Positions 26,222 to 39,642 of a stretch of DNA of 64,000 nt are shown one piece after another. Source of the DNA: Bacteroidota bacterium (GTDB taxonomy: Bacteria; Bacteroidota; Bacteroidia; Flavobacteriales; Flavobacteriaceae); NCBI GenBank assembly GCA_024279425.1, contig JAJRRO010000059.1, forward strand, positions 1 through 64,000, read 5' to 3'. The position numbers and the translations under genes were made by a program. Each line of letters opens with the position of its first letter. The first letter of the stretch is position 1. A model generated the notes under the pieces. The model had not been told where the DNA came from and did no database searches. It worked only from the letters and a program-made list of their open reading frames with translations.

Positions 26222-27035
26222 TTAATCGGTTAAAGGCAGGGAAGTATTTAACATTCCGTCAACAATGACTTTTCCCAATCCGTCTCCATAAAAACTTACG
26301 CTAGACTCGTATCCTTCGCCATTGTTATATTGATCAGCGCTCAGAATATAGCTGATCCATTCGTTGGCGAGCCCACCAATGGTAGGGTGTTCAATTCCCT
26401 TTGCTTTTAGTTGTTTTTTAATTTTTAAACCCAATCCTGCTGCCAATTCGCCAGGTGCCCCGACCATTAGAAGATCTCCGAGCCTCAAGGCACAAATATG
26501 TATTTTCCGGACTCATAACACCCAAAACAACATCCAAAACTTCTGGTGTAAGCTTGTATTCCTCACCTCCAGTTTCCATAAAGGAGGGATGCACTTTACG
26601 CTTTGGTAAATCCACTACAAAATGATTATATTCAAATTTCACTTTTGATCTGGTCCTTGTGTTTTGATAAATCCTTAAAGCTTTTATGGCCACTTCCCTT
26701 CCATAGACCTCAGCTTTTTCATAATGGCTGGAACCACCGCCCTGCCCTATTGGGGATTGATCTCCTTCAGCACCATTGTAATACATAACCGTTATTCCAT
26801 TCCCAATCCATTGCTCAAGTTCCCGTTGCATAAAACCAGGCCACCCTCCTGACACCATCATATCTTCTCCGCTCATAAATGTCGGATGGGCTGTCCAATT
26901 CACAAGAACGGTCATTGGTGCACCGTTTTCATAATCAATGCGGGTAAGGGTAAGTTCATTATCCACCTCTGGATCTCCACGTCTATTTCGATTCATATTA
27001 GGGATTAGAATACTGGGTCTGGACCCCTGCACCAC
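26222..27035 (-). pseudogene. Neutral/alkaline ceramidase-like pseudogene (N-terminus lost, frameshifted)
   Basis: Two frames together give about 270 residues of a neutral ceramidase-like protein. The first (27035 to about 26490) has LVNWTAHPTFMSGEDMMVSGG and YYNGAEGDQSP. The second (about 26488 to 26222) has RLGDLLMVGAPGELAAGLG and ends normally (NTSLPLTD). The frame change falls at 26488-26500, where a single missing base would restore LCALRLGDLL. The N-terminal half is absent: the reading frame runs at 27000-27035 into the 5' end of the opposite, also truncated, gene. Ceramidase-like proteins hydrolyse N-acyl links of sphingolipids and related amides. This copy should be inactive unless the frameshift is a sequencing error. 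Confidence 0.7.
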
Positions 27036-28639
27036 ATGACCTGACCGTCAAAAATGCACATGAGGAAGGGCTTAAAGAACAAGAAGCTTTCTATGCAAGT
27101 TGCCCTAGACTTGATGGTGTCTTTGTTCCTGGCGGCGATCCAGGGGAAAATCACCCTTCCAATTTAATTCTTTATTTAAAGGATTTGTCGATACTGCTTC
27201 AAAAACACCATCCCGATGCTGGTCTTTGGGTATCCTTACAAGGTTTTAACGAAGAAAAAGTGAAGTATTTTTTTAAATACCTTGAGGACCAAAACCCAGA
27301 TTGGCTTAAAGGTGTTGTTTATGGGCCAAGTAGCCCTCCCATTGAGTGGGAACGGGAACATTTGCCAAAGAAATACCAACATCGCTTTTATCCGGATATA
27401 ACGCATACAGTAAGATGTCATTATCCCGCTGAAAATTGGGACCAGGCCTTTGCACTAACCTTGGGCAGGGAGCCTTGCAACCCACAGCCATTGCTTTATA
27501 CTAAACTTTTTAATAAGGATGCCAAGCATACTGATGGATTCATAACGTATTCCGATGGTTCCCATGATGATGTGAATAAAGTACTATGGAGCCAGTTGGG
27601 GTGGGATTCCAAAGGTGATGTAAGGGCTGTTATCGTTGAATATTGCCGGTCTTTCTTTGGTGCAAAAGTTGCTGAAGAGTGTGCCGATGGCATATTTGCC
27701 TTGGAACAAAATTGGGTAGGCCCGGCCTTGGGAAACAAGGTGATTGGAGAGACTCTGGCGTTATGGAAAAAACTTGAAATCGACAATCCTGGGCTGGCAG
27801 ATAATTGGAGATGGCAACAATTGATAATGCGTGCCTATTACGACGCCTATATACAAGCCCGTCTTACGTATGAGAAAGGTCTTGAAGTTGAAGCTTACCA
27901 AATACTTGGCAATGCAAAAACAATTGGTGCCGATAAGGCTATGACAAAAGCATTGGATCATATTCAAAGGGCAGATCGAAAACTTGTTTCCCAAGAATTA
28001 AAGCGGAAAGTTTTTCAATATGCCGATGATTTGTTTCATTCCATTGGGGCTCAGACCAGTGTATCAAAATACAATGCCCGTAGCGCCGAACGGGGAGCTG
28101 TATTGGATCTTATAGATTATCCATTGAATAATAGATGGTGGTTGGAAGATGAATTTAAGAAAATACGGGAGTTTACAACTGAAGATGCGAAATTGGCCAG
28201 ACTTGAGTTTATTAGAAACTATGAATTTCCAGGAAAAGGAAGTTTCTATGACAATATTTCAAGCGCTGATGCAAAACACGTAACCTCTGAAACCGATGAT
28301 GCCATTGACTATTTATGGGAGAATAACGGCCTAAGTAGAAAGCGGCTTTCCACCCAATTATTTCAGTTTACGCCAACATTGGAGTATGATGATCTAGACC
28401 CAAACTCAAATTATATCATTCGTGTTTCTGGCTATGGGGAAGCCTTATTAAGAGCCAATGGTGAGCGATTAAAATCCACCAAATACGAAAAAGGGTTTGA
28501 GCAATTTAAAGAATTTCCATTACCCAAAAATCTAATTAAAGAGGGAAAGCTTAAAATTGCATTCGACAAACCAGACGAAGAACACCTGAACTGGAGAAAA
28601 CAATCGAGAGTAACGGATGTGTGGGTATTGAAACAATAA
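27002..28639 (+). pseudogene. N-terminally truncated glycoside-hydrolase-like protein
   Basis: The reading frame opens after a stop at 26999 and shows family-like sequence at once (YWVWTPAPHDL, GVFVPGGDPGENHP), before any good start codon, so the N-terminus is missing. The remaining 545 residues include a TIM-barrel-like portion (GLWVSLQGF, DGFITYSDGSHDDVNKVLW), a helical region (about 235-330) and a C-terminal galactose-binding-like beta-sandwich. The layout resembles GH67/GH115-like or GH20-like enzymes, but I cannot assign a family. A TTG or GTG start (for example near 27185) might still yield a shortened product. It is head-to-head with the broken ceramidase gene and looks like the other side of one deletion or inversion. 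Confidence 0.6.
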
Positions 28640-28713: not shown

Positions 28714-29535
28714 ATGAATATCATGAATCAAAAACTAATTCATGAAATAGAAAATTGGTTTCGACAATATCAGGGGACGATCACCGCCTTTTCAGGGGGA
28801 ATTGACTCGGCCCTGGTTCTTTTTCTTTCCAGAAAATATTTGGGGCGAAAAAGAACCCTTGGCGTAATATCCAATAGCGAAAGCCTAAAAGACAAGGACT
28901 ATCGATTGGCATTGGATTTTGCTTGTAAAAATGATATTCAATTAGAAACCGTTTATACAAAAGAGTTGTCAGATCCAAATTACAGTACCAATCCTGCTAA
29001 CCGCTGTTACTTTTGTAAAACGCATTTGTATGATGCTTTAGACAAGATTAAGACGAAGTATCCTGAATATACCATATTAAACGGCACAAATAAGGACGAC
29101 TTTTCAGATTATAGGCCCGGAATGAAGGCCGCCGATGAAAATGGGGTAAAATCTCCATTGGCAGATCTTGGATTGGGCAAGGTGGAGATTCGGGAGCTTG
29201 CGAAACACTTTGGCATTCCATTTTGGGATAAGCCGGCCAGTCCCTGCTTAAGTTCAAGAATACCCTATGGCAATAAGGTTACTGCCAATAAATTAGAGCA
29301 AATAGAAAAAGTTGAAGGGATTTTGAACGACTTTGGATTTAATAACGTAAGGGCTAGGCACTATGATAAATCCTGTGTTATTGAAGTCCCCTTGTCAGAA
29401 CTTGGTGCATTAAAAAACTATTCCGCCGAAATTTTTCCAAAAATAGAAAATATCGGTTTTGAGAAATGTATAATAGAGGAAGATGGGTTAATCTCAGGAA
29501 AACTAAATCAAGCATTAAGGGTAAATAATGGATAA
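28714..29535 (+). CDS. larE: Nickel-pincer cofactor sulfur transferase LarE
   Basis: LarE adds two sulfur atoms to the dicarboxylated, nicotinic-acid-derived nucleotide made by LarB. The protein has 273 residues, the PP-loop SGGIDSALVLF near residue 27 for adenylation, and conserved blocks NRCYFCKTHLYDAL and WDKPASPCLSSRIPYG. Cys98, Cys101 and Cys178 give the three-cysteine pattern of LarE proteins that hold a [4Fe-4S] cluster and can turn over, unlike the single-Cys sacrificial enzyme of Lactobacillus. It overlaps larB by 8 bp. The intergenic gap upstream (28640-28713) must contain the promoter, or transcription reads through from the truncated gene. Confidence 0.94.
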   Translation: MNIMNQKLIHEIENWFRQYQGTITAFSGGIDSALVLFLSRKYLGRKRTLGVISNSESLKDKDYRLALDFACKNDIQLETVYTKELSDPNYSTNPANRCYFCKTHLYDALDKIKTKYPEYTILNGTNKDDFSDYRPGMKAADENGVKSPLADLGLGKVEIRELAKHFGIPFWDKPASPCLSSRIPYGNKVTANKLEQIEKVEGILNDFGFNNVRARHYDKSCVIEVPLSELGALKNYSAEIFPKIENIGFEKCIIEEDGLISGKLNQALRVNNG

Positions 29536-30181
29536 CTTTAATATTGATCATGATAGAGAAAACCGAATTGGTTTCCCAGAGGTGGTTTATGGTGTAAATA
29601 AATCCATTGAAGATTTATCCCAAATATTGGAAAACTATAATACACGAGGAAAAAATGCCATGGTCACAAAACTGCAACCCGAAAAGGCAGCAATTTTAAT
29701 GGCGGAATACCCCAATGCATTCTATGATAAACTGTCGAATATCTTTATGGCGCAACCATTGAAAGAAATCCATGGCGAAGGTGAAGTAGCTATCATTTCG
29801 GCTGGGACATCGGACATCCATATTGTCAATGAAGCCTATTATACCTTGCAGTTTATGGGTATAAAGGCCCAAAGAGTGAACGATGTGGGAGTAGCAGGTA
29901 TACATAGGATAATGGACCTAGTTGAAGAATTACGGTCTTACAAAATCTTGATTGTAATTGCCGGTTTTGAAGGTGCTTTGCCGACGGTGGTAGGCGGACT
30001 TTTACACCAACCCATTATCGCAGTACCTGCCGATGTCGGCTATGGTGTTGCCGAAGGTGGACATGTAGCATTGAACGCCATGCTTTCCAGTTGTGCCAAT
30101 GGTATAACTGTAGTGAATATTAATAATGGATACGGTGCTGCCATGTCGGCCTTGCGTATACTAAATATAATTAAAAAGTAA
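29528..30181 (+). CDS. larB: Nickel-pincer cofactor biosynthesis carboxylase LarB
   Basis: LarB carboxylates the pyridinium ring of nicotinic acid adenine dinucleotide and hydrolyses the phosphoanhydride, the first step to the pincer cofactor. The protein has 217 residues; the C-terminal domain is PurE-like with AIISAGTSDIHIVNEA, VGVAGIHRI, IAGFEGALPTVVGGL and VPADVGYGVAEGG. It is slightly shorter at the N-terminus than the Lactobacillus enzyme (about 246). It overlaps larE by 8 bp, and its stop abuts the larC start, so all three are translationally coupled. Confidence 0.95.
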   Translation: MDNFNIDHDRENRIGFPEVVYGVNKSIEDLSQILENYNTRGKNAMVTKLQPEKAAILMAEYPNAFYDKLSNIFMAQPLKEIHGEGEVAIISAGTSDIHIVNEAYYTLQFMGIKAQRVNDVGVAGIHRIMDLVEELRSYKILIVIAGFEGALPTVVGGLLHQPIIAVPADVGYGVAEGGHVALNAMLSSCANGITVVNINNGYGAAMSALRILNIIKK

Positions 30182-31435
30182 ATGAACACCCTTTATATTG
30201 AAGCTTTTTCGGGCTTATCCGGTGACATGTTTTTGGGAGCTTTGGCGGGATTGGCCGATGCTTATGATGAGTTGGAAAAACTTCCCGAATTGCTTGCCTT
30301 AAGTGATGGTAAAATAGAGATTACCGAAGTTGATAAAAATGGTATTATCTGTAAGCATGTCAAGGTCATCGACTTAAATGAACAGCACAGCCATTCCCCT
30401 AGTAATGAACACGAGCACCATCATGAGCATGGGCATGATCACCATCATGACGACAATCACAACCATGGTCATCACCATCATCATCGGCATTTAAGCGATA
30501 TCAATACAATTATTGAAAACGCGTCCATTCCAGATAACGCAAAAAAAATTGCAAAAGCTATTTTCTTGATTATTGGAGAATCGGAAAGTAAGATCCATAA
30601 CATCCCTCTGAAAAAAATTCATTTTCATGAGGTAAGTGGTGTCGATTCAATTATAGATATTGTTGGATGCGCTCTATTGTTAGATAAGCTTAAGATAAAT
30701 AAAACCTATGCCACACCCATTTGCACAGGGTTTGGCTTTGTAAACACCCAACACGGCAAACTACCTGTCCCCGCCCCTGCAACCGCTGATATACTAGCAG
30801 GTATACCCAGTTATGCCGGTGATGAACAAGGAGAAAGGGTCACCCCCACAGGGGCGGCGATTTTAAAGTATTTGAATTCAGATTTTGACATCCCCGTTTT
30901 GACTGCCACAAAAACAGTATATGGGCCGGGATCTAAAGATTTTATTGCCCCGAATGTTGTACGATTATCCCTATGCGAACAACAAAACAGCTCAGAGGAC
31001 ATTTATGTTTTAGAGACCAATATCGATGATATGTCCAATGAATTTCTGGGTAATGACTTCCAAGAAGGTCTGTTCAAGCATGGAGCGAACGATTTCCATT
31101 ACAATTCCATTCATATGAAAAAAGGTCGTCAAGGGGTTTTATTGTCCTGTTCAGTACCAGCCAATAGAATTCAACAACTATCTGACTATATTTTTGAACA
31201 TACTTCGACGATCGGAGTTCGATATTATCCTGTAAAAGGGAATAAATTGGAGCGCGAAATCAGGTCGTTTGAAACGCCATATGGTATGGTAAACGTTAAA
31301 ATCGTCAAGACTCCATCTGGGAGAAAAAAAACGAAAATTGAATATGATGATCTAAAGAAAATCAGTGACAAAATAGATCAACCTATATATTTTTTAGAAA
31401 AAGAAATTATGAACCTTATAAATGAACAATTATGA
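30182..31435 (+). CDS. larC: Nickel-pincer cofactor nickel insertase LarC, His-rich
   Basis: LarC inserts nickel into the dithiolated mononucleotide using CTP. The protein has 417 residues in one frame, with both parts (LarC1- and LarC2-like) joined, whereas Lactobacillus needs a ribosomal frameshift. The start MNTLYIEAFSGLSGDMFLGA is diagnostic; KIHFHEVSGVDSIID, GERVTPTGAAIL and ETNIDDMSNEF also fit. Residues 69-103 carry 19 His in 35 positions, probably a nickel store or entry site. The stop overlaps the start of a 72-residue HupE-like membrane peptide by 4 bp (ATGA). Confidence 0.95.
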   Translation: MNTLYIEAFSGLSGDMFLGALAGLADAYDELEKLPELLALSDGKIEITEVDKNGIICKHVKVIDLNEQHSHSPSNEHEHHHEHGHDHHHDDNHNHGHHHHHRHLSDINTIIENASIPDNAKKIAKAIFLIIGESESKIHNIPLKKIHFHEVSGVDSIIDIVGCALLLDKLKINKTYATPICTGFGFVNTQHGKLPVPAPATADILAGIPSYAGDEQGERVTPTGAAILKYLNSDFDIPVLTATKTVYGPGSKDFIAPNVVRLSLCEQQNSSEDIYVLETNIDDMSNEFLGNDFQEGLFKHGANDFHYNSIHMKKGRQGVLLSCSVPANRIQQLSDYIFEHTSTIGVRYYPVKGNKLEREIRSFETPYGMVNVKIVKTPSGRKKTKIEYDDLKKISDKIDQPIYFLEKEIMNLINEQL

Positions 31436-31650
31436 AAACTAAATTGCTAATGACTTTGATGCTTATTCCTATGATCGGTATGGCCCATTCGGGACATGAA
31501 CACAACGTAACCGATATCCTATTAAATCCATTGTCTTGGGCTGATCATGGACTGGTAATAACTCTTTTGGGCATTTTATCCCTAGTGGTAATCCGAAAAA
31601 TAGTATTAAAGTATTTCCCCAACACTTTTAAAAGTCTTGCAAAAAAGTAA
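31432..31650 (+). CDS. Tiny HupE/UreJ-like membrane peptide coupled to larC
   Basis: The protein has 72 residues. A signal peptide (to Ala18) would leave a mature N-terminus with His-Ser-Gly-His-Glu-His, then LLNPLSWADHGLVITLLGIL and one membrane helix with a basic tail. The histidine-rich N-terminus followed by a NPLS-x-x-DH motif resembles the first helix of HupE/UreJ nickel permeases, which are about 200 residues with six helices. This is thus a one-helix relative. It overlaps the larC stop by 4 bp, so translation is coupled and a role in nickel handling for cofactor synthesis is likely. The function is inferred. The next 163 bp are noncoding. Confidence 0.75.
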   Translation: MKTKLLMTLMLIPMIGMAHSGHEHNVTDILLNPLSWADHGLVITLLGILSLVVIRKIVLKYFPNTFKSLAKK

Positions 31651-31813
31651 TAGTCTTAACTTCCTGATAAGCCAATATTAAGGAGTCAAGGTGCGGTTAT
31701 GCTTCAATAAGGGTTAGCAAAATTACTGTCATAGAGTCAAAAACTTTTTGTCTCAATCCACTGAATGTGCCCCAAACTGATTAAACATCAAATTATTACC
31801 AAAATTTAAACGT

Positions 31814-32845
31814 GTGAAATACGAAGGAAAATACAAGGTTTTCGATCCCAATAGGATAAATACATATCCTGTCTCCGGTCGTACTAATAAAGTAAAATTC
31901 AATGATCTTGTTTTTCCAGATCAAATCGACAAGATGGAATTTAATATTTCGGAAGATGTCGATAAAAGGATTACAGAACTTGCAAAAAATATAATTACCG
32001 CCAAAGAAAAGGGTAATCCCGTATTATTTTTTACTGGAGGACATCTGGTTAAAAATGGATTGAGCTTGCTACTGGGAGAACTGATAAAGAAGGATGCTTT
32101 TACCATTGTTGCAGGAAATGGTTCAACTTCCATTCACGATTTCGAATTGGGTCTTATAGGTGAGACCAGTGAATATGTGCCGCAAGCCTTGGAAAAAGGT
32201 GAATTCGGAATGGCTTATGAATTCAATTATATCAATGCCGCCCTGATTATAGGGGATACATACAATCTTGGTTACGGGGAGTCAGTGGGCAAAATGATTT
32301 GTGACCTCTCATTTAGAAAAGAGGTAGAAATACTTCTTGATCTAGAAGAAAATGCAATTCAATTTTCATATCCCGAATTAAGTGTTCAGGCCATATGCTA
32401 TGACCATAATATACCTTTTACGGTACACGCAGGGATTGGAACCGATGTTATAGATCAACACCCCTATTTCGATGGGCGGGCCAAAGGCGGATGTTCCGGA
32501 AGGGATTTTTTGATTTACACCAATGAAATTGCCCAACTCGAAAACGGTGGCGTAATACTTAACGTAGGAAGTGCCGTCACAGGGCCGGAGGTGTTTTTGA
32601 AAGCTGCCTCCATGGCCGGAAATATCGGTCAAGTTCCTGATAAGATCATCACCGCGAATTTTGACCTAAGAGCCTATAATCCTGAAGATTTCACAAAAGA
32701 AGATCGCGTGGGTTATTATTACCGTGATCAGAAAAGTATTGTCACAAGGGTTCCTGATGCTTATAATGGAAAAGGGTATTATATCGGTGGAAATCAAATT
32801 CATACGATACCGGTGCTTTATAAAAAATTGATGGCAATGTTGTAA
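31814..32845 (+). CDS. Deoxyhypusine synthase-like Rossmann protein of unknown function
   Basis: The protein has 343 residues and no signal. The blocks VLFFTGGHLVKNGLSLLLG, GNGSTSIHDFELGLIGETSE, AGIGTDVIDQHPYFDGRAKG and LNVGSAVTGPEVFLKA fit my memory of a bacterial family with a deoxyhypusine-synthase-like NAD-binding fold, found in environmental Bacteroidota and Planctomycetota, often beside sugar-phosphate genes. It lacks the family signature of LarA, so it is not an obvious pincer-cofactor enzyme. The start is GTG at 31814; the next ATG would remove about 40 conserved-looking residues. It heads the seven-gene series after larC. An NAD-dependent sugar or sugar-phosphate step is possible but unproven. 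Confidence 0.6.
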   Translation: MKYEGKYKVFDPNRINTYPVSGRTNKVKFNDLVFPDQIDKMEFNISEDVDKRITELAKNIITAKEKGNPVLFFTGGHLVKNGLSLLLGELIKKDAFTIVAGNGSTSIHDFELGLIGETSEYVPQALEKGEFGMAYEFNYINAALIIGDTYNLGYGESVGKMICDLSFRKEVEILLDLEENAIQFSYPELSVQAICYDHNIPFTVHAGIGTDVIDQHPYFDGRAKGGCSGRDFLIYTNEIAQLENGGVILNVGSAVTGPEVFLKAASMAGNIGQVPDKIITANFDLRAYNPEDFTKEDRVGYYYRDQKSIVTRVPDAYNGKGYYIGGNQIHTIPVLYKKLMAML

Positions 32846-32912
32846 ACCAATCGCTTCATTGAAAAAGGTATAGGGTTCATCCAGTTATTATAGTGGTTAA
32901 GTATTGACAAAA

Positions 32913-34829
32913 ATGAAACAAGAAAGAATAAAGGAAATTCTCAAGAAATTCGAAAACGTGAAAGTCGCGGTCTATGGTGATTTTTGCTTAGATGTCTATT
33001 GGGATATGGATCCTGAAGGGTCAGAGGTTTCTGTGGAAACAGGACTAAAGGCAGAATCAGTGGCAAAACATACCTATTCACCCGGAGGAGCTGGAAATAT
33101 TGTGGCAAATATTGCCGCATTACATCCTAAATCCATCAAAGTAATCGGAGTTGTGGGAGCCGATATCTATGGGAATGAATTGCAATCAAAATTAGAAGGG
33201 CTGGGTGCTGATATCAGCCCATTAACAATTCAAAAAGACAACTTCAATACCTATACCTATATCAAAAAAATGTATGGGGAAAAAGAAGACCCTAGGATAG
33301 ATTTCGGTTTAAAAAATAAGAGGTCAAAGGAGACTGATCAAGCCATACTCCAGAATATCAAGGCTGCCCTAGAAGACCAAGATGTTTTGATTTTCAATCA
33401 ACAAGTGGTTGGTAGCATTCCCAATGAAGAATTCATTGATGCTGTAAATATACTATTCGAAGAATTTGATGATAAGGTCGTTATTTTGGATTCAAGACAT
33501 TACAATGATAAGTTCAAAAGTGTATACCGCAAATCAAATGAGATAGAAACCGCTGTTTTAAATGGCAAAGATGCACAGCCACAGGATTTTATTTCCTTTT
33601 CAGAGATTAAGAAACACGGGGCCAAGGTGTATGAACGATACAATAAACCTCTTTTCGTAACCTGCGGGAATCGAGGTATTATTACGTTTGATGCCAATGG
33701 AATCAATGAAATTCCCGGAATACTGATAAACAGCACCATAGATACGGTAGGAGCAGGTGATACATCCTTGAGTGCCATTTCTTTGTGCTTGGCTGCTGGT
33801 ATTCAACCCGCTGAAGCCGCAAGGTTTGCCAATTTTGCCTCCGCCATAACCATACAAAAGCTTTTTACGACCGGTACGGCAACCGGTGAAGAGGTTCTGG
33901 CCATTAGCAAGGATGCCGACTATAATTTTAGGCCAGAACTGGCCAATGACCTGCGATCGGCCAGTTATTATAAAGACTCCGAAATAGAAATTTGTGATGC
34001 CGAGGTAACTTCAGTATTGGGTCATATAAAACATGTAGTTTTTGATCATGACGGTACCATAAGTACCCAACGCGAAGGTTGGGAAGCTATTATGGAGCCC
34101 GTAATGATCAAGGCCGTATTGGGAGATTTATATGAAACGGCTGATAAAGCACTTTACGATCAAGTACAGAATCGTGTTCTTGACTTTATCGACACTTCTA
34201 CAGGTATTCAAACCATCGTTCAGATGGAAGGCCTAGTAAAAATGGTAGAAGAATTTGGCTTGGTTCCACAAGAAGACGTTTTGGACAAGTTTGGATATAA
34301 AGAAATTTACAATGACGCTTTAATGGAAATGGTCAATAAGCGGATACTTAAATTCAGCAGTGGACAGTTGGTAGTATCCGATTTCACGCTAAAAGGTGCT
34401 GTAGATTTCCTTAAAACCCTTAAAGCGCGTGGAGTAATAGTGTATTTGGCCAGTGGAACTGATGAAGAAGATGTAGTTAATGAGGCCAAATCTTTGCGGT
34501 ATGACCATCTTTTCGATGGAGGTATTTACGGCTCTGTCGGCGACATTAGCAAGTATTCCAAAAAAATGGTCATTGAAAAAATTATCCGTAGCAATAAACT
34601 AAAAGGAAACGAATTAGTAGTCATAGGTGATGGTCCCGTCGAAATAAAGGAATGTATTAAAGCGGGGGGAATCGCCATTGGAATTGCAAGTGATGAAGTT
34701 CGTAGATATGGACTAAATCCACAAAAACGGTCACGATTGATTAAAGCTGGGGCCCAGATAATCATTTCTGATTTTTCCCAAAGTAGTACACTACTGGATT
34801 TAATATTCAATACACAGAAAAATGCCTAA
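32913..34829 (+). CDS. PfkB-family sugar kinase fused to a HAD phosphatase
   Basis: The protein has about 638 residues. Residues 1-330 form a ribokinase/PfkB domain, close to heptose-7-phosphate kinase (HldE/RfaE N-terminus): VAVYGDFCLDVYWD, YSPGGAGNIVANIAAL and DTVGAGDTSLSAI, with the catalytic Asp. Residues about 370-620 form a capped HAD hydrolase: VVFDHDGTIST (nucleophile Asp), ASGTDEEDV and VIGDGPVEIKECIKAGG. A kinase and a phosphatase in one chain would phosphorylate one position and release another, as in the heptose route (HldA then GmhB), although this HAD is not of the cap-less GmhB type. The ATG at 32913 is preferred to the TTG at 32904. The stop overlaps the ROK gene by 8 bp. Confidence 0.85.
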   Translation: MKQERIKEILKKFENVKVAVYGDFCLDVYWDMDPEGSEVSVETGLKAESVAKHTYSPGGAGNIVANIAALHPKSIKVIGVVGADIYGNELQSKLEGLGADISPLTIQKDNFNTYTYIKKMYGEKEDPRIDFGLKNKRSKETDQAILQNIKAALEDQDVLIFNQQVVGSIPNEEFIDAVNILFEEFDDKVVILDSRHYNDKFKSVYRKSNEIETAVLNGKDAQPQDFISFSEIKKHGAKVYERYNKPLFVTCGNRGIITFDANGINEIPGILINSTIDTVGAGDTSLSAISLCLAAGIQPAEAARFANFASAITIQKLFTTGTATGEEVLAISKDADYNFRPELANDLRSASYYKDSEIEICDAEVTSVLGHIKHVVFDHDGTISTQREGWEAIMEPVMIKAVLGDLYETADKALYDQVQNRVLDFIDTSTGIQTIVQMEGLVKMVEEFGLVPQEDVLDKFGYKEIYNDALMEMVNKRILKFSSGQLVVSDFTLKGAVDFLKTLKARGVIVYLASGTDEEDVVNEAKSLRYDHLFDGGIYGSVGDISKYSKKMVIEKIIRSNKLKGNELVVIGDGPVEIKECIKAGGIAIGIASDEVRRYGLNPQKRSRLIKAGAQIIISDFSQSSTLLDLIFNTQKNA

Positions 34830-35796
34830 GAATTTACAACCGGAGGCCTATTATTTGGGATTTGATATTGGTGGCACCAAATGCAGTATTGTATTGGGGG
34901 ATAAGGACTTTAACATCTATGAGAAGATTTTTTTTGAAACCAAAGTCGAAAGGGGATACAAAGCCATTTTAGAAGAATTCAAAGACCATGTCCAAAAACT
35001 TTTTGAAACCTATGACCAAAAAAAAATGCTTAAAATCGGGATTAGTTGTGGAGGACCATTAGATTCAAAGAAAGGAATCATAAAATCGCCCCCAAATCTA
35101 CCGGGATGGGACGAGGTCCCGATTGTTGACCTATTTAAAAATGAATTTCAAGTGCCCGTTGAAATTCAAAATGATGCCAATGCTTGTGCTATTGCCGAAT
35201 GGATGATGGGTGCGGGCAAGGGTTCACAAAATATGATATTTCTGACTTTCGGAACTGGAATGGGCGCTGGACTCATTTTAAACGGAAGGATTTATTCAGG
35301 CACTAATGACCTCGGCGGCGAAATTGGCCATATACGAATGGCCGATAAGGGCCCAATAGGTTTTGGAAAAGCAGGCTCCTTCGAAGGATTTTGTAGTGGA
35401 GGCGGAATTGCCCAATTGGCAAAAGCCCATGTATTGAAAAAACTGGATGCCAAAGCGCATGTTGGATTTTGTACATCCAAGGAAAATGTTGATAAAATAA
35501 CGGCCAAGACCGTTTTTGAGGCGGCAAATTTGGGAGATGAAGTGGCGCATGAAATTGTCAGGATATCAGCGGAACATCTGGGAAAAGGGATTGCGATATT
35601 GATCGATATCCTCAATCCTGAACGTATCGTAATCGGGAGTATCTACGCTCGCAATGAAAAATTATTAAAGCCAATGGTTGAAACGGTCTTAAGGAAGGAA
35701 GCAATCGCGGATGCCCTTGATGTTTGCAAAATTTTACCTGCAAAATTGGGTGATAAGATAGGAGACTATGCAGCATTGGGTGTGGCTTTGCAATAA
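34822..35796 (+). CDS. ROK-family sugar kinase, zinc motif lost
   Basis: The protein has 324 residues. The ATP-binding loop YYLGFDIGGTKCSIV, the catalytic Asp in IQNDANACAIAEW and the second nucleotide loop FLTFGTGMGAGLI are present, as is GEIGHIR. The usual CxCGxxGCxE zinc-binding site is replaced by PIGFGKAGSFEGFCSG: the three Cys positions carry Ile, Phe and Ser, while Gly and Glu are kept. This is therefore a zinc-free ROK enzyme or a divergent sugar specificity. No DNA-binding domain precedes it, so it is a kinase and not a repressor. It is co-translated with the kinase-phosphatase fusion (8-bp overlap). Confidence 0.9.
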   Translation: MPKNLQPEAYYLGFDIGGTKCSIVLGDKDFNIYEKIFFETKVERGYKAILEEFKDHVQKLFETYDQKKMLKIGISCGGPLDSKKGIIKSPPNLPGWDEVPIVDLFKNEFQVPVEIQNDANACAIAEWMMGAGKGSQNMIFLTFGTGMGAGLILNGRIYSGTNDLGGEIGHIRMADKGPIGFGKAGSFEGFCSGGGIAQLAKAHVLKKLDAKAHVGFCTSKENVDKITAKTVFEAANLGDEVAHEIVRISAEHLGKGIAILIDILNPERIVIGSIYARNEKLLKPMVETVLRKEAIADALDVCKILPAKLGDKIGDYAALGVALQ

Positions 35797-35830
35797 ACTA
35801 GAAACGAGTTCAATTGGTAAATAGCATAGT

Positions 35831-36544
35831 ATGCAAATATTGAAAAATCTATTTCAGGTAGGTGGTGATTTAAACGGAATAACCTTTGACCTTCCTGGTG
35901 CTCTCTGGAATGATGGAAACTCCTATATTCTAAAAACTCCCAAAGGGTTGATTATGTTTGATTGTGGATGTGGGGATACAATGAATCAAATTTTTAAGAA
36001 TATGGAATATTGGGGAATGGCCCCAAAAGACATTCTATATTGTTTGTTGACCCACCCTCATTTTGACCATGCCGGAGGGGCCCATATTTTAAAGGAACAG
36101 GGCGTTGAATTGATTGCGATTAAGGAAACCGCCAATGCTATTTTAGAAGGTGACGAACGTTGCTGCGGGTATCTTTATCACAAGAAATTTAAGCCTTGCA
36201 AGGTAGACCAGGTTGTTAAAGATGGTGAGATTCTCCAGTTACTGGACATAACGTTTAAAGTAATGCACTTTCCAGGACATTCTATGGGATGTACTGCCTT
36301 TGGTTTTGAACATGAGCAAAAACGCATAGTGGTTAGTGGTGATATCATTGGCACTATATTAGGAGGGGATTTCGGATGGGACGGATCTATTGACTTCAAT
36401 AAAAAAGTCTATATAGATTCGCTAAGACGATTTGCAAAAGTTGAAATGGATATGATGTTACCCGGTCATGGCCTCATCCATTTTCATAAACCTCAATATC
36501 GTATTGAGGAATCTCTCAATAGTGCCTTGATGCAATGGCGATAA
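35831..36544 (+). CDS. Metallo-beta-lactamase-fold hydrolase
   Basis: This 237-residue cytoplasmic protein has the metal site THPHFDHAGGAHIL (HxHxDH), HFPGHSMGCTAF, VVSGDIIG and LPGHGLIHFH. The family includes lactonases, glyoxalase II and phosphodiesterases. In this operon, beside kinases and an isomerase, a lactone or thioester hydrolase acting on a sugar-derived substrate is plausible. It starts 34 bp after the ROK gene and ends 35 bp before the isomerase gene. Confidence 0.88.
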   Translation: MQILKNLFQVGGDLNGITFDLPGALWNDGNSYILKTPKGLIMFDCGCGDTMNQIFKNMEYWGMAPKDILYCLLTHPHFDHAGGAHILKEQGVELIAIKETANAILEGDERCCGYLYHKKFKPCKVDQVVKDGEILQLLDITFKVMHFPGHSMGCTAFGFEHEQKRIVVSGDIIGTILGGDFGWDGSIDFNKKVYIDSLRRFAKVEMDMMLPGHGLIHFHKPQYRIEESLNSALMQWR

Positions 36545-36579
36545 AAAATATATTAAAAAATGATACTTAAGTTGTAGCT

Positions 36580-37215
36580 ATGGAAACAAACAAAATATTG
36601 GAAGAATTGCTAGACCGATATCCTCCCCTCGAAATCTGCAAGGATCAAATACAGAAAGGGGGAGAAATACTAATTGAATCCTATAAAAATGACGGTAAAT
36701 TATTGGTCTGTGGAAATGGGGGCAGCTCTTCGGATTCCGATCACATTGTTGGGGAGTTAATGAAGAGTTTTTCCAAAAAACGCCCCATATCCAGTAATCT
36801 TTCAGCAAATCTGACAGAAATATCCAGTGATAGAGGACAGTTGCTCTCAGCTAAACTGGAAAGTGGTTTGTCCGCCATTTCTCTGAGTGCACATAGCGGA
36901 TTGGTGTCGGCAATTTCAAACGATATCGGAGGTGATTTTGTTTTTGCACAGCAAGTAGCGGGTTACGGAAGAAAAAATGATGTTTTGTTAGGAATCAGTA
37001 CTTCGGGTAATTCCCAAAACGTTGTGGATGCCTGCATTACGGCCAAGGCAAAAGGGATGAAGGTAATCGGATTAATTGGGGAAAATGGAGGTGCAATGAA
37101 AGCATACTGTGACATAGCTATCTGTGTGCCTTCAACCTTGACCGCTCATATACAGGAATTCCATTTACCCATATATCATGTGCTGTGCATCATGGTAGAA
37201 GAAACCTTTTTTTAG
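36580..37215 (+). CDS. SIS-domain isomerase, GmhA-like
   Basis: This 211-residue protein is close to sedoheptulose-7-phosphate isomerase GmhA. The phosphate-binding loops VCGNGGSSSDSDHIVGELM and ISTSGNSQNVV are present, as are a Glu (in GELM) and the C-terminal helix with AHIQEFHLPIYH, supplying Glu and His catalytic candidates. GmhA turns a ketose-7-phosphate into the aldose-7-phosphate that a PfkB-type kinase then phosphorylates. Exactly such a kinase lies three genes upstream. No nucleotidyltransferase for ADP- or GDP-heptose is visible, so a catabolic or non-heptose use is equally possible. Confidence 0.87.
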   Translation: METNKILEELLDRYPPLEICKDQIQKGGEILIESYKNDGKLLVCGNGGSSSDSDHIVGELMKSFSKKRPISSNLSANLTEISSDRGQLLSAKLESGLSAISLSAHSGLVSAISNDIGGDFVFAQQVAGYGRKNDVLLGISTSGNSQNVVDACITAKAKGMKVIGLIGENGGAMKAYCDIAICVPSTLTAHIQEFHLPIYHVLCIMVEETFF

Positions 37216-37247
37216 CATAAATCGTCGGCATTTATAATAAAATCAAC

Positions 37248-38645
37248 ATGAATAGGTCCAATACTAAAACTTTGTCTTTTTTACTTGCCTTAGGGCTTTG
37301 TACCATCAACAGTTGTAAAGAAGATAACAAAACCAGCGATACTCCATTGACAGAAAAACAGATCACCTTTACTCCAAAAACACATTCCCTAGACAATAAC
37401 GACAACTTTTCCCCAGATGGAAAATACCTATGCTATGATACACGGGGCATGGTGTTCAATACGAATTTGGCAAATAGTAAGTCTATCGAAAAGGTGGAGA
37501 TAGCCACAGGCAAGGAAACCGTATTGTGGGAGCCCGAATCGGTATCCGGTGAAAATGGTGCACCCGGAGTAGCTGCGGTTTCATACCATCCAACAGAGAA
37601 CAAAGTCATATTCATTCACGGACCATTACTGGAAGAAGTGGACGAAAGAGGATATTATGACATTAGAAACCGCACAGGTGTCATCGTAAGTGCTGACGGA
37701 TCTGGTGTCGTTACAAAAGTAGATATGCGGGATGCTTCCGCTGATGGGCCAACAATTTTTGGCGCCCAAAGAGGAGGAACACATCGGCATGAATTTTCCC
37801 GTGATGGAAAACGGATTGGTTTCACCTACGATGATTTCCTTCAACAGGATTATGATCGAACCATCGGATATATGGAACCCCATGAAAATGCCCCCAAAGG
37901 CTATACCAATTATTTTACGGTATTGCTAAAGCCGGTTAAAAAGGGAAGCTCGAAACCCGGTGAGATTGAAAAGGCCTATGGTGATTCCTGGGTGGATCAT
38001 AAAGGAACCAAACGTGCTTTTATAGGCAAGGTTAGGGCCGCAAATGGTGTTGATTACGAAACCTCTCTTTTTGTTGCAGAGATTCCCGATACCACTGACA
38101 TAACAACAGCAGATTCAGGAGATAAGGATACCTATCCCCTACCCCCAAAAGGAATTAAAATTAGAAGACTTACACACAGCACATCGGATGAAGGTATAGT
38201 TCGAGGTTCGTATGACGGGAAAAGGATAGCCTATCTATCAAATGATAAAAACGGAATACAGCAGGTTTATGTTATTCCGACTGACGGTTCCGATACTCAT
38301 GAAAATATAGAAAAGCGACCCAAAAAAGTAACCAATTACAAATCGGATGCTTCCAACATAAGATGGCATGTTTCCGATGATTGGGTGTTTTCCATAAGCC
38401 ATGGTAAAGTATATGCCAGTACTATTGGGAACCTTACCGATTTTGGAAAAACATTCCTTTTGACACCTGAGGATTTAGAGAGAGGGAATTTGGTTGCAGC
38501 CCCAAAAGGTGATATGCTGGCGTATAAAGTAAACCTTATCGATAAAAATTCTGAACGAGTAATTGATGGAGCAGTTCAAAATGAAGTTGCACAAATATTT
38601 ATTCTAGAAATAAATGATGACTATTTGAAGGGGCTACTAAATTGA
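37248..38645 (+). CDS. DUF3748/TolB-like propeller lipoprotein (YidR-related)
   Basis: The protein has 465 residues with a lipoprotein signal ending at Cys23 (INSC). PD40-type strands (NFSPDGKYLCYDTRG, YHPTENKVIFIHGP, FSRDGKRIGFTYDD, GSYDGKRIAYLSND) indicate a six- to seven-bladed TolB-like propeller. The pattern (IFIHGPLLEE, RRG/NRTGVIVSADG, RGGTHRHEFS) matches the DUF3748 family that includes E. coli YidR, of unknown function. It may bind or process a pectin- or uronate-like ligand, as related oligogalacturonide lyases do. It is the only exported member of this operon. Confidence 0.75.
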   Translation: MNRSNTKTLSFLLALGLCTINSCKEDNKTSDTPLTEKQITFTPKTHSLDNNDNFSPDGKYLCYDTRGMVFNTNLANSKSIEKVEIATGKETVLWEPESVSGENGAPGVAAVSYHPTENKVIFIHGPLLEEVDERGYYDIRNRTGVIVSADGSGVVTKVDMRDASADGPTIFGAQRGGTHRHEFSRDGKRIGFTYDDFLQQDYDRTIGYMEPHENAPKGYTNYFTVLLKPVKKGSSKPGEIEKAYGDSWVDHKGTKRAFIGKVRAANGVDYETSLFVAEIPDTTDITTADSGDKDTYPLPPKGIKIRRLTHSTSDEGIVRGSYDGKRIAYLSNDKNGIQQVYVIPTDGSDTHENIEKRPKKVTNYKSDASNIRWHVSDDWVFSISHGKVYASTIGNLTDFGKTFLLTPEDLERGNLVAAPKGDMLAYKVNLIDKNSERVIDGAVQNEVAQIFILEINDDYLKGLLN

Positions 38646-38649
38646 GTTG

Positions 38650-39642
38650 ATGGGGGAAAAAGTACAATGGGGAGTATTGGGTGCTGCAACCATAGCTATG
38701 GAACAGGTTATCCCAGCATTGAAGAAAAGTAAACATTCAGAGCTTTTGGCCATTGCTTCAAGAAACATTGAAAAAGCTAGGGAAGCAGCAAAATCTTCAC
38801 AGATTCCAAAATATTATGGCAGCTATCAGGAATTACTTGATGATAAGGAAATTGAAGCTGTTTACATTCCCCTACCCAATCACCTTCATGTAAAATGGGC
38901 CATCAATGCCTTAAAAGCCAGAAAGCATGTACTGGTTGAAAAACCGATAGCCATGAGTAGCTCTGAAGCCAGAAAGTTAATGGACGAGGCCAATAAACAT
39001 CCAGACCTCAAAATAGCTGAGGCATTTATGTATAAATATCATCCCCAGTGGGTAAGGGTAAAAGAAATGATTACCAATGGAGCGATAGGGCAATTAAAAA
39101 CCATCCAATCTTCGTTTTCGTTCTTTGATGATGACCCCAAAAGCATCGTGAACAACAAGGAATTTGGTGGTGGTAGTCTTATGGACATCGGTTGTTATCC
39201 TATTTCCATCTCTCGATTTTTATTTGATACCGAACCTACATCGGTTTTGGCCACAATAGATTACCATCCTGAATTTGAGGTAGATATTTTAGCCACCGGA
39301 ATACTTGAATTTGAATCGGGAAATTCCTCATTCTTTAGTGGCATCCAATTGACGGAAAACCAACAAGTGCATATTTTTGGAACAGAAGGCAGCATTGAAT
39401 TTGAATTGCCTTTTAATCCGCCCAATGATAAATCCGCAAGAATTTGGTGGACCAAAGGTGGCCACAAAAAGGAAATATCGTTTGAAATATGCAATCAATA
39501 TACCTTACAGGCCGATTCTTTTTCATTGGCCATCTTGGAAAACAAAGAAGTGACTACTGATCTGGAAGATGCATGCAAGAATATGGTCATTATTGAAAAA
39601 TTAAAAGAAAGTGATAGAAGCGGTAAGCGAATTAGTCTATAG
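38650..39642 (+). CDS. Cytoplasmic Gfo/Idh/MocA oxidoreductase
   Basis: The protein has 330 residues and no signal. The NAD(P) loop WGVLGAATIA, the motif HVLVEKPIAM and GGGSLMDIGCYPISISRFLF are those of the dihydrodiol/D-xylose dehydrogenase-like branch. It should oxidise a sugar hydroxyl in the cytoplasm. The ATG at 38650 is used; a TTG one codon earlier overlaps the stop of the previous gene. It closes the larE-to-dehydrogenase series. The 168 bp that follow (39643-39810) are noncoding and hold GAGGCTGT and AGAGCCTGTTTAAA strings, similar to the MITE-like ends near 20.2 kb. Confidence 0.9.
   Translation: MGEKVQWGVLGAATIAMEQVIPALKKSKHSELLAIASRNIEKAREAAKSSQIPKYYGSYQELLDDKEIEAVYIPLPNHLHVKWAINALKARKHVLVEKPIAMSSSEARKLMDEANKHPDLKIAEAFMYKYHPQWVRVKEMITNGAIGQLKTIQSSFSFFDDDPKSIVNNKEFGGGSLMDIGCYPISISRFLFDTEPTSVLATIDYHPEFEVDILATGILEFESGNSSFFSGIQLTENQQVHIFGTEGSIEFELPFNPPNDKSARIWWTKGGHKKEISFEICNQYTLQADSFSLAILENKEVTTDLEDACKNMVIIEKLKESDRSGKRISL

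What the first reader, a model, noticed from the sequence alone, without database searches (positions are those of the whole stretch)
28714..39642. Nickel-pincer cofactor genes (larE-larB-larC) heading a sugar-phosphate operon, without larA
larE, larB and larC overlap or abut and run into a seven-gene, same-strand series of two sugar kinases, a phosphatase, an SIS isomerase, an MBL hydrolase and an oxidoreductase. The known user of this cofactor, LarA (lactate racemase) or its epimerase relatives, is absent here. Either the apoenzyme lies elsewhere or a gene in this series is a new cofactor user. The LarA superfamily includes hydroxyacid and sugar-acid epimerases, so a sugar-acid epimerase route is a reasonable hypothesis.
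Basis: partly seen in the sequence, partly recalled or inferred. Interest (0 to 1): 0.78.

Follow-up and report, generated by a model that had tools for sequence, protein, structure and literature searches.

The report
Nickel cofactor genes lacking known client
A relative of the flavobacteria carries the genes for making a rare nickel cofactor but no recognisable gene for the enzyme family known to use it; the genes run into a conserved sugar-phosphate operon whose first large gene, a protein of NAD-enzyme fold and unknown function, is the leading candidate for a new kind of user.

Summary
In detail: larE, larB and larC (28714-31435) overlap or abut and lead a same-strand series to 39642. The whole 5.27 Mb genome has no LarA (Lar_N) and no DUF362, a relative in LarA's Pfam clan. 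Synteny recurs: larEBC precede the same sugar module in five other loci of the order, overlapping it or within about 25 bp in four.

The gene that matters was not named. The first full-size gene after larC (31814-32845) is a GSU2086-family protein with the deoxyhypusine-synthase/ornithine-cyclodeaminase (NAD-type) fold, not LarA's. Across phyla it travels with PfkB kinase, HAD phosphatase and phosphoheptose-isomerase-like SIS proteins. GSU2086 genomes have LarC in 13 of 14 (own-phylum panel) and 110 of 121 (phylum of a Geobacter).

Against GSU2086 as cofactor user: only 29 of 50 GSU2086 genomes sampled across phyla have LarC, no residue separates the two sets, and two sister larEBC operons sit beside an aldo/keto reductase in genomes without GSU2086. 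So the cofactor probably serves a non-LarA client; GSU2086 is the best single candidate, roughly one in three. LarA-less larBCE is a published open question; this gives it testable candidates.

The parts
28714..29535 (+). larE, sulfur insertase with the three-cysteine ([4Fe-4S]-type) pattern, C98/C101/C178
   Evidence: TIGR00268 272.5 bits, cut-off 150; cysteines listed; T. maritima LarE needs Cys92, Cys96, Cys172 (PMC9283937, passages)
29528..30181 (+). larB, carboxylase/hydrolase
   Evidence: NF033503 264.6 bits, cut-off 175; overlaps larE by 8 bp
30182..31435 (+). larC, nickel insertase (LarC1+LarC2) with a His-rich insert
   Evidence: PF01969 399 bits; TIGR00299 and NF052512 over cut-off
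31432..31650 (+). 72-aa peptide: signal-like start, AHSGHEHN motif, one hydrophobic stretch (by reading); possible nickel-handling membrane peptide (inference)
   Evidence: ATG overlaps larC stop; relative after larC in L078 (E 1.9e-16), similar-looking ORFs after larC in L012 and L013 and near larC in L043; no Pfam hit
31814..32845 (+). GSU2086-family protein, DHS/OCD-type (NAD-type) fold; leading candidate cofactor client
   Evidence: NF052581 304 bits, cut-off 250; AF2 model pLDDT 95.5; Foldseek best 3c2q, ArgZ/AgrE, DHS
32904..34829 (+). PfkB-type kinase fused to HAD phosphatase (HldE-kinase-like, no nucleotidyltransferase match)
   Evidence: PF00294 and PF00702; rfaE_dom_I 123 bits, below cut-off 345
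34822..35796 (+). ROK-family sugar kinase
   Evidence: PF00480 203 bits
35831..36544 (+). MBL-fold hydrolase
   Evidence: PF00753 89 bits
36580..37215 (+). SIS isomerase, phosphoheptose-isomerase (GmhA)-like
   Evidence: gmhA TIGR00441 166 bits, below cut-off 209; best solved relatives are phosphoheptose isomerases, 1tk9 E 2.7e-39
37248..38645 (+). DUF3748/TolB-like lipoprotein
   Evidence: PF12566 77 bits; lipoprotein by reading of the N terminus
38647..39642 (+). Gfo/Idh/MocA oxidoreductase; no counterpart after DUF3748 in L011 and L075, the other three linked loci end too soon to tell
   Evidence: PF01408 and PF22725; locus comparison

Best explanation
[quoted passage not shown] The operon joins NPN synthesis to a conserved module handling a heptose-like sugar phosphate (SIS isomerase, PfkB kinase, HAD phosphatase, ROK kinase). 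The most likely single client is the GSU2086-family protein at 31814-32845: a hydride-transfer (NAD-type, DHS/OCD) fold in which NPN, itself made from a nicotinate nucleotide, would sit where the nicotinamide half of NAD sits in relatives and take and return a hydride on a sugar-phosphate carbinol, giving an epimerisation. Shown here: the genes, no Lar_N or DUF362 match, the recurrent linkage, the fold class. Inferred: that NPN is made, that it binds GSU2086, the substrate and the reaction.
For: LarE, LarB and LarC over curated cut-offs. No Lar_N or DUF362 in the genome. larEBC upstream of GSU2086 in the window, L011, L075, L076, L077 and L078; in L011, L075, L076 and L077 larC overlaps GSU2086 or lies within about 25 bp of it. 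Their LarC proteins need one change on the tree (92/73), with a deep split between G037 and the Flavobacteriaceae, so the link has been kept. Of five LarC genomes found without LarA and DUF362, three (G000, G037, G185) carry GSU2086; the other two (G025, G176) do not. GSU2086 genomes with LarC: 13 of 14 in the own-phylum panel against 7 of 282 without GSU2086 (own genome included); 110 of 121 against 59 of 77 in the phylum of a Geobacter. A divergent LarC lies inside a GSU2086 operon of Ornatilinea. GSU2086 is, as I read them, the only oxidoreductase-type fold among the genes shared by the linked operons. His77, His108 and Lys263 in 82 of 82 sequences; Lys (74) or Arg (8) at 80.
Against: Only 29 of 50 GSU2086 genomes sampled over many phyla have LarC. 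No residue separates GSU2086 of LarC+ from LarC- genomes, and the lar-linked sequences have no residue of their own at a conserved position. Of the 50 fold matches listed, those whose titles name a cofactor name NAD. Sister larEBC operons in G006 and G025 lie beside an aldo/keto reductase, in genomes without GSU2086, and G176 is alike. Linkage was not seen outside the order, apart from the Ornatilinea case: larEBC near GSU2086 in 4 of 79 loci, many with short flanks. In the phylum of a Geobacter LarC is so common (169 of 198) that the association is weak (P 0.006). Panel counts are not corrected for shared ancestry.
Confidence: 0.36

Rival explanations
1. The NPN client is an unlinked, unrecognised enzyme (for example a lar-type aldo/keto reductase), GSU2086 is an ordinary NAD enzyme, and lar sits in the operon only because both are wanted under the same conditions.
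For: AKR genes flank larEBC in G006, G025 and G176, none of which has GSU2086 or LarA; G006 does have a DUF362 protein elsewhere. GSU2086 occurs without LarC in 21 of 50 genomes with no residue change.
Against: Tight operon linkage to the GSU2086 module in six loci of two families. No AKR hit in the window; the rest of the window genome was not searched for AKRs.
Confidence: 0.33
2. Another protein of the same operon (MBL, DUF3748 lipoprotein, Gfo/Idh/MocA or SIS) is the NPN client.
For: Same operon; SIS and DUF3748 recur in L011, L075, L076 and L077.
Against: Their families have known non-NPN chemistry (recalled). MBL is missing between ROK/PfkB and SIS in L011, L076 and L077, and Gfo after DUF3748 in L011 and L075.
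Confidence: 0.1
3. A LarA gene exists but was missed (assembly gap or extreme divergence).
For: The assembly is in 140 contigs.
Against: Listed completeness 100; the same search finds LarA in 31 of 296 phylum genomes but in none of 60 relatives, four of which (own genome included) have LarC; DUF362 also absent.
Confidence: 0.06
4. The lar genes make NPN for export or cross-feeding, or the pathway is no longer used.
For: No known client found in the genome.
Against: All three genes are over cut-off and kept together in relatives.
Confidence: 0.08

Closest known systems
larABCDE lactate racemase systems (L. plantarum) and LarA-superfamily operons
   Same: LarE, LarB, LarC over curated cut-offs
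   Different: No LarA found in the genome; linked to a sugar-phosphate module instead
LarA-less larBCE genomes, such as many cyanobacteria (PMC11796402: passages, section 17)
   Same: Cofactor genes without LarA; that paper puts such genomes at about 15% and expects an unidentified client with another fold
   Different: Here the genes sit in an operon with a candidate client; no such link is named in the passages read
DUF362 proteins (same Pfam clan CL0471 as LarA, PMC11770544 methods passage) next to lar genes in other genomes of the phylum
   Same: lar genes without LarA; DUF362 lies near larC in G124, G197 and G201, look-alikes in L156, L162 and L171 (by reading)
   Different: DUF362 absent from the window genome and from G037
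GSU2085-GSU2087 of Geobacter sulfurreducens (hldE, GSU2086, gmhA; PMC5585712, one passage)
   Same: GSU2086 family beside heptose kinase and phosphoheptose isomerase
   Different: lar genes are not among the neighbours listed there; here the kinase is fused to a phosphatase instead
Deoxyhypusine synthase and AgrE/ArgZ of cyanobacteria
   Same: Fold class of the GSU2086 model (best Foldseek E 1.9e-8; sequence profile E 5e-5)
   Different: 8-16% identity in the listed matches and TM-scores about 0.5 to the query; different operon

Membership tests
NPN cofactor biosynthesis (LarE, LarB, LarC) | All three proteins over curated equivalog cut-offs | tested here: met
NPN cofactor biosynthesis (LarE, LarB, LarC) | LarE carries the three cluster cysteines of the [4Fe-4S] type | tested here: met
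   C98, C101, C178, matched by eye to T. maritima Cys92, Cys96, Cys172
NPN cofactor biosynthesis (LarE, LarB, LarC) | Produces NPN | not testable with these tools
   needs biochemistry
LarA superfamily (client) | Lar_N (PF09861) protein in the genome | tested here: not met
   0 in G000
LarA superfamily (client) | GSU2086 protein is a distant LarA | tested here: not met
   hhalign probability 0.3% against 7 LarA-like sequences; no LarA among the 50 fold matches shown of 730
DUF362 (LarA clan relative) | PF04015 protein in the genome | tested here: not met
   0 in G000 and G037
GSU2086 family (NF052581) | Score over curated cut-off | tested here: met
   304 vs 250 bits
Deoxyhypusine synthase / ornithine cyclodeaminase | Fold | tested here: met
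   TM-scores about 0.5, so a distant match
Deoxyhypusine synthase / ornithine cyclodeaminase | Catalytic and NAD-binding residues | not tested
   no coordinates at hand
ADP-heptose pathway (GmhA, HldE) | Isomerase and kinase over curated cut-offs, plus nucleotidyltransferase domain | tested here: not met
   GmhA 166 vs 209, HldE kinase domain 123 vs 345, no nucleotidyltransferase match in the fused protein

The most novel reading that the evidence does not exclude
GSU2086-family proteins are the sought non-LarA users of the nickel-pincer nucleotide, at least where larEBC is in their operon: a second, unrelated fold (DHS/OCD, NAD-type) that has taken NPN in place of NAD to epimerise a heptose-like sugar phosphate by hydride transfer.
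Probability: 0.3. Interest if true: 0.9.

Novelty: new variant of a known kind. Interest (0 to 1): 0.62.

Why it matters
Genomes with larB, larC and larE but no larA are a published puzzle: about 15% of genomes analysed, with a client of unknown sequence and fold expected (PMC11796402). Here such a genome has no protein matching LarA's family or DUF362, and its cofactor genes are held in an operon with a named protein whose fold is predicted well. That turns a genome-wide search into one co-expression experiment. A positive result would, as far as the papers seen tell, be the first NPN enzyme outside the LarA fold and would assign a function to a widespread family; a negative one would narrow the hunt to the AKR-type and unlinked candidates.

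Tried and rejected
A LarA or DUF362 gene elsewhere in the genome: searched, none.

GSU2086 as a hidden LarA: rejected by profile comparison and by fold.

A residue signature of NPN use in GSU2086: none convincing between 35 sequences of LarC+ and 21 of LarC- genomes (the columns that differ are variable ones) or in the six lar-linked ones (only position 52, itself variable).

Are the LarC-less genomes merely incomplete? I asked for LarE in 33 LarC-less GSU2086 genomes with 10 LarC+ ones as control. LarE passes its cut-off in 15 of 33 and 10 of 10. Seven of the 15 places were fetched with about 1.5 kb on either side at most (L207, L208, L209, L211-L214); my script recognised LarE in six of them (not in L211, where it kept an overlapping frame) and no larB or larC in any; by reading, neighbours include MnmA-, cysteine-desulfurase- and thiazole-type genes. 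So these LarEs look like loners, but a lar gene farther off, or larB, was not searched. Not settled.

Trees: G037's GSU2086 lies outside the Flavobacteriaceae clade while its LarC joins theirs with moderate support, so whole-operon transfer versus repeated assembly is not settled. LarC status needs 11 changes on the GSU2086 tree.

Promoter and terminator scan: promoters at the shuffle mean, terminators below it; nothing concluded. Structure library pdb_via was not on the machine. Literature on GSU2086: one paper, one table row; on a DHS-like protein with heptose: none; on DUF362 with nickel: the LarA-superfamily paper and an unrelated one; on nickel-pincer since 2025: four listed, none whose title or abstract start names a non-LarA client. 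A search for AgrE papers gave no structural paper to compare NAD-binding residues with.
Full report
What is there. The window is the first 64 kb of contig C78 of a 5.27 Mb, 140-contig genome with listed completeness 100. larE (28714-29535), larB (29528-30181) and larC (30182-31435) pass their curated equivalog cut-offs. LarE has Cys98, Cys101 and Cys178, the pattern of the non-sacrificial [4Fe-4S] LarE of Thermotoga maritima (Cys92, Cys96, Cys172; PMC9283937, passages). LarC has a His-rich insert. A 72-aa peptide with a signal-like start, an AHSGHEHN motif and one hydrophobic stretch begins on an ATG overlapping the larC stop. Then come, on the same strand, a GSU2086-family protein, a PfkB-HAD fusion, a ROK kinase, an MBL protein, a SIS isomerase, a DUF3748 lipoprotein and a Gfo/Idh/MocA oxidoreductase.

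No LarA-type client. Lar_N finds nothing in the genome, while 2 of 14 control genomes ring. DUF362, which shares Pfam clan CL0471 with LarA (PMC11770544, methods passage), is absent too. Among 60 relatives, own genome included, LarC passes its cut-off in four (G000, G037, G025, G006) and Lar_N in none.

Conserved linkage. The order larE-larB-larC, GSU2086, PfkB-HAD, (ROK), (MBL), SIS, DUF3748 is found in G037, of another family of the same order (L011), and in Flavobacteriaceae loci L075, L076 and L077; L078 (Cerina litoralis) ends just after GSU2086. larC and GSU2086 overlap or lie within about 25 bp in L011, L075, L076 and L077; in the window and in L078 the peptide gene lies between them. 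In L075 and L076 a gene lies between larB and larC, which Pfam names alkaline phosphatase in L075; L077 has a gap of similar length there. On a tree of 49 LarC proteins the six linked ones need one change (92/73), and the AKR-linked LarCs of G006 and G025 fall beside them. Linkage is not general: of the 79 GSU2086 loci fetched, 4 have larEBC within the DNA held, and one more (L108, Ornatilinea) has a divergent LarC inside a HAD-GSU2086-PfkB-LarC-ROK operon. That LarC matches PF01969 at 206 bits, but its N-terminal part looks degenerate (my reading).

What GSU2086 is. It has no Pfam family and passes NCBIfam GSU2086. A 46-sequence alignment gives an AlphaFold2 model of mean pLDDT 95.5. Foldseek's best matches are a LOR/SDH protein (3c2q), cyanobacterial ArgZ/AgrE, one entry of which is a complex with ornithine and NAD+, and deoxyhypusine synthases, at TM-scores near 0.5; a sequence profile finds the same proteins (best E 5e-5; deoxyhypusine synthase only at E 0.28 and 1.2). 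There is no profile similarity to LarA. Over phyla GSU2086 keeps company with PfkB, HAD and SIS proteins, and in seven loci from Chloroflexota and archaea (L103-L106, L108, L110, L113) the GSU2086 frame continues into a SIS-like domain (domain recognised by reading). In Geobacter sulfurreducens GSU2086 is listed between hldE and gmhA (PMC5585712, one passage). The SIS protein's best solved relatives are phosphoheptose isomerases, and heptose 7-phosphate kinase is one of five solved relatives of the kinase, after pseudouridine kinases. A heptose-like sugar phosphate is therefore the likely substrate (inference).

Co-occurrence. In a 296-genome panel of the own phylum (own genome included), GSU2086 passes its cut-off in 14 and LarC in 20; 13 genomes have both, and G310 has GSU2086 alone (Fisher 6e-17). 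Eighty genomes with weak, partial GSU2086 matches were left out of the 14. Lar_N is in 31, of which 11 have LarC. In 198 genomes from the phylum of a Geobacter, GSU2086 passes in 121 (6 sub-threshold genomes left out) and LarC in 169; 110 of 121 GSU2086 genomes have LarC against 59 of 77 others (P 0.006). Over many phyla the tie is weaker: 29 of 50 GSU2086 genomes have LarC (50 of the 79 loci given, the four lar-linked ones and 25 others not). The 21 misses include 10 of the 15 genomes whose titles name Planctomycetota or a group within it, and all three from Brockarchaeota or Crenarchaeota. None of these counts is corrected for ancestry.

Weighing. Long-kept operon structure argues that lar and the GSU2086 module work together, and GSU2086 is the only hydride-transfer-type fold shared by the linked operons. 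But GSU2086 appears to live without LarC in several lineages, with the same conserved residues, and sister lar operons lack it. If GSU2086 uses NPN here, either those lineages use NAD in the same pocket or their cofactor genes were missed; a LarE search did not settle which. I put GSU2086 at about one in three, an unlinked client at about the same, and give LarA-by-oversight little weight.

Other clients in view. Of 12 LarC+ LarA- genomes of the phylum, 7 have DUF362; of 21 LarC- LarA- relatives, none has (P 2e-4; the controls are all from one order, so ancestry is a confounder). Of the five without DUF362, three have GSU2086 (G000, G037, G185) and two (G025, G176) have aldo/keto reductases beside lar instead.

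Novelty. LarA-less larBCE is known and posed as an open question in print (PMC11796402, passages and section 17). In the searches I saw no report of the GSU2086 link; the library holds only open-licence papers, of which I read abstracts, passages or single sections.

Noticed in passing
G124:C115, G197:C1, G201:C25; L156, L162, L171: DUF362 proteins lie near larC in LarA-less genomes of the phylum (three by search; three by reading), and DUF362 occurs in 7 of 12 LarC+ LarA- genomes but 0 of 21 LarC- LarA- ones: likely NPN clients of the LarA clan.
   Followed up: partly
L012 4635-6095, L013 15-941, L201 4671-5621: Aldo/keto reductase genes flank larEBC in three genomes that lack LarA (G025, G006, G176); G006 also has a DUF362 protein elsewhere.
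   Followed up: partly
window 31432-31650; L078, L012, L013, L043: A short peptide with an AHPGHxHH-type motif and a hydrophobic stretch follows larC or lies near it; it may help bind or import nickel. No Pfam family.
   Followed up: partly
phylum panel: 20 of 31 genomes with a Lar_N protein have no LarC over the cut-off, including a family (f51) whose seven listed genomes have two Lar_N matches each: possible LarA relatives that do not need NPN.
   Followed up: no
L207, L211, L212, L213; LarE-family proteins over cut-off occur in genomes without LarC, on stretches with MnmA-, cysteine-desulfurase- or thiazole-type genes (by reading): LarE relatives may have another sulfur-transfer role.
   Followed up: partly
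window 27008-28636: The gene upstream of larE matches residues 240-782 of a 782-aa protein that also precedes larE in Cerina (L078); no match to the first 239 residues was found in the window, so this copy looks truncated.
   Followed up: partly
L103-L106, L108, L110, L113: GSU2086 fused to a phosphoheptose-isomerase-like SIS domain in Chloroflexota and archaea.
   Followed up: partly
NZ_CP026539.1 83521-84465: A GSU2086 relative lies on a Solidesulfovibrio plasmid, with a gene annotated as SIS domain protein under the same match.
   Followed up: no
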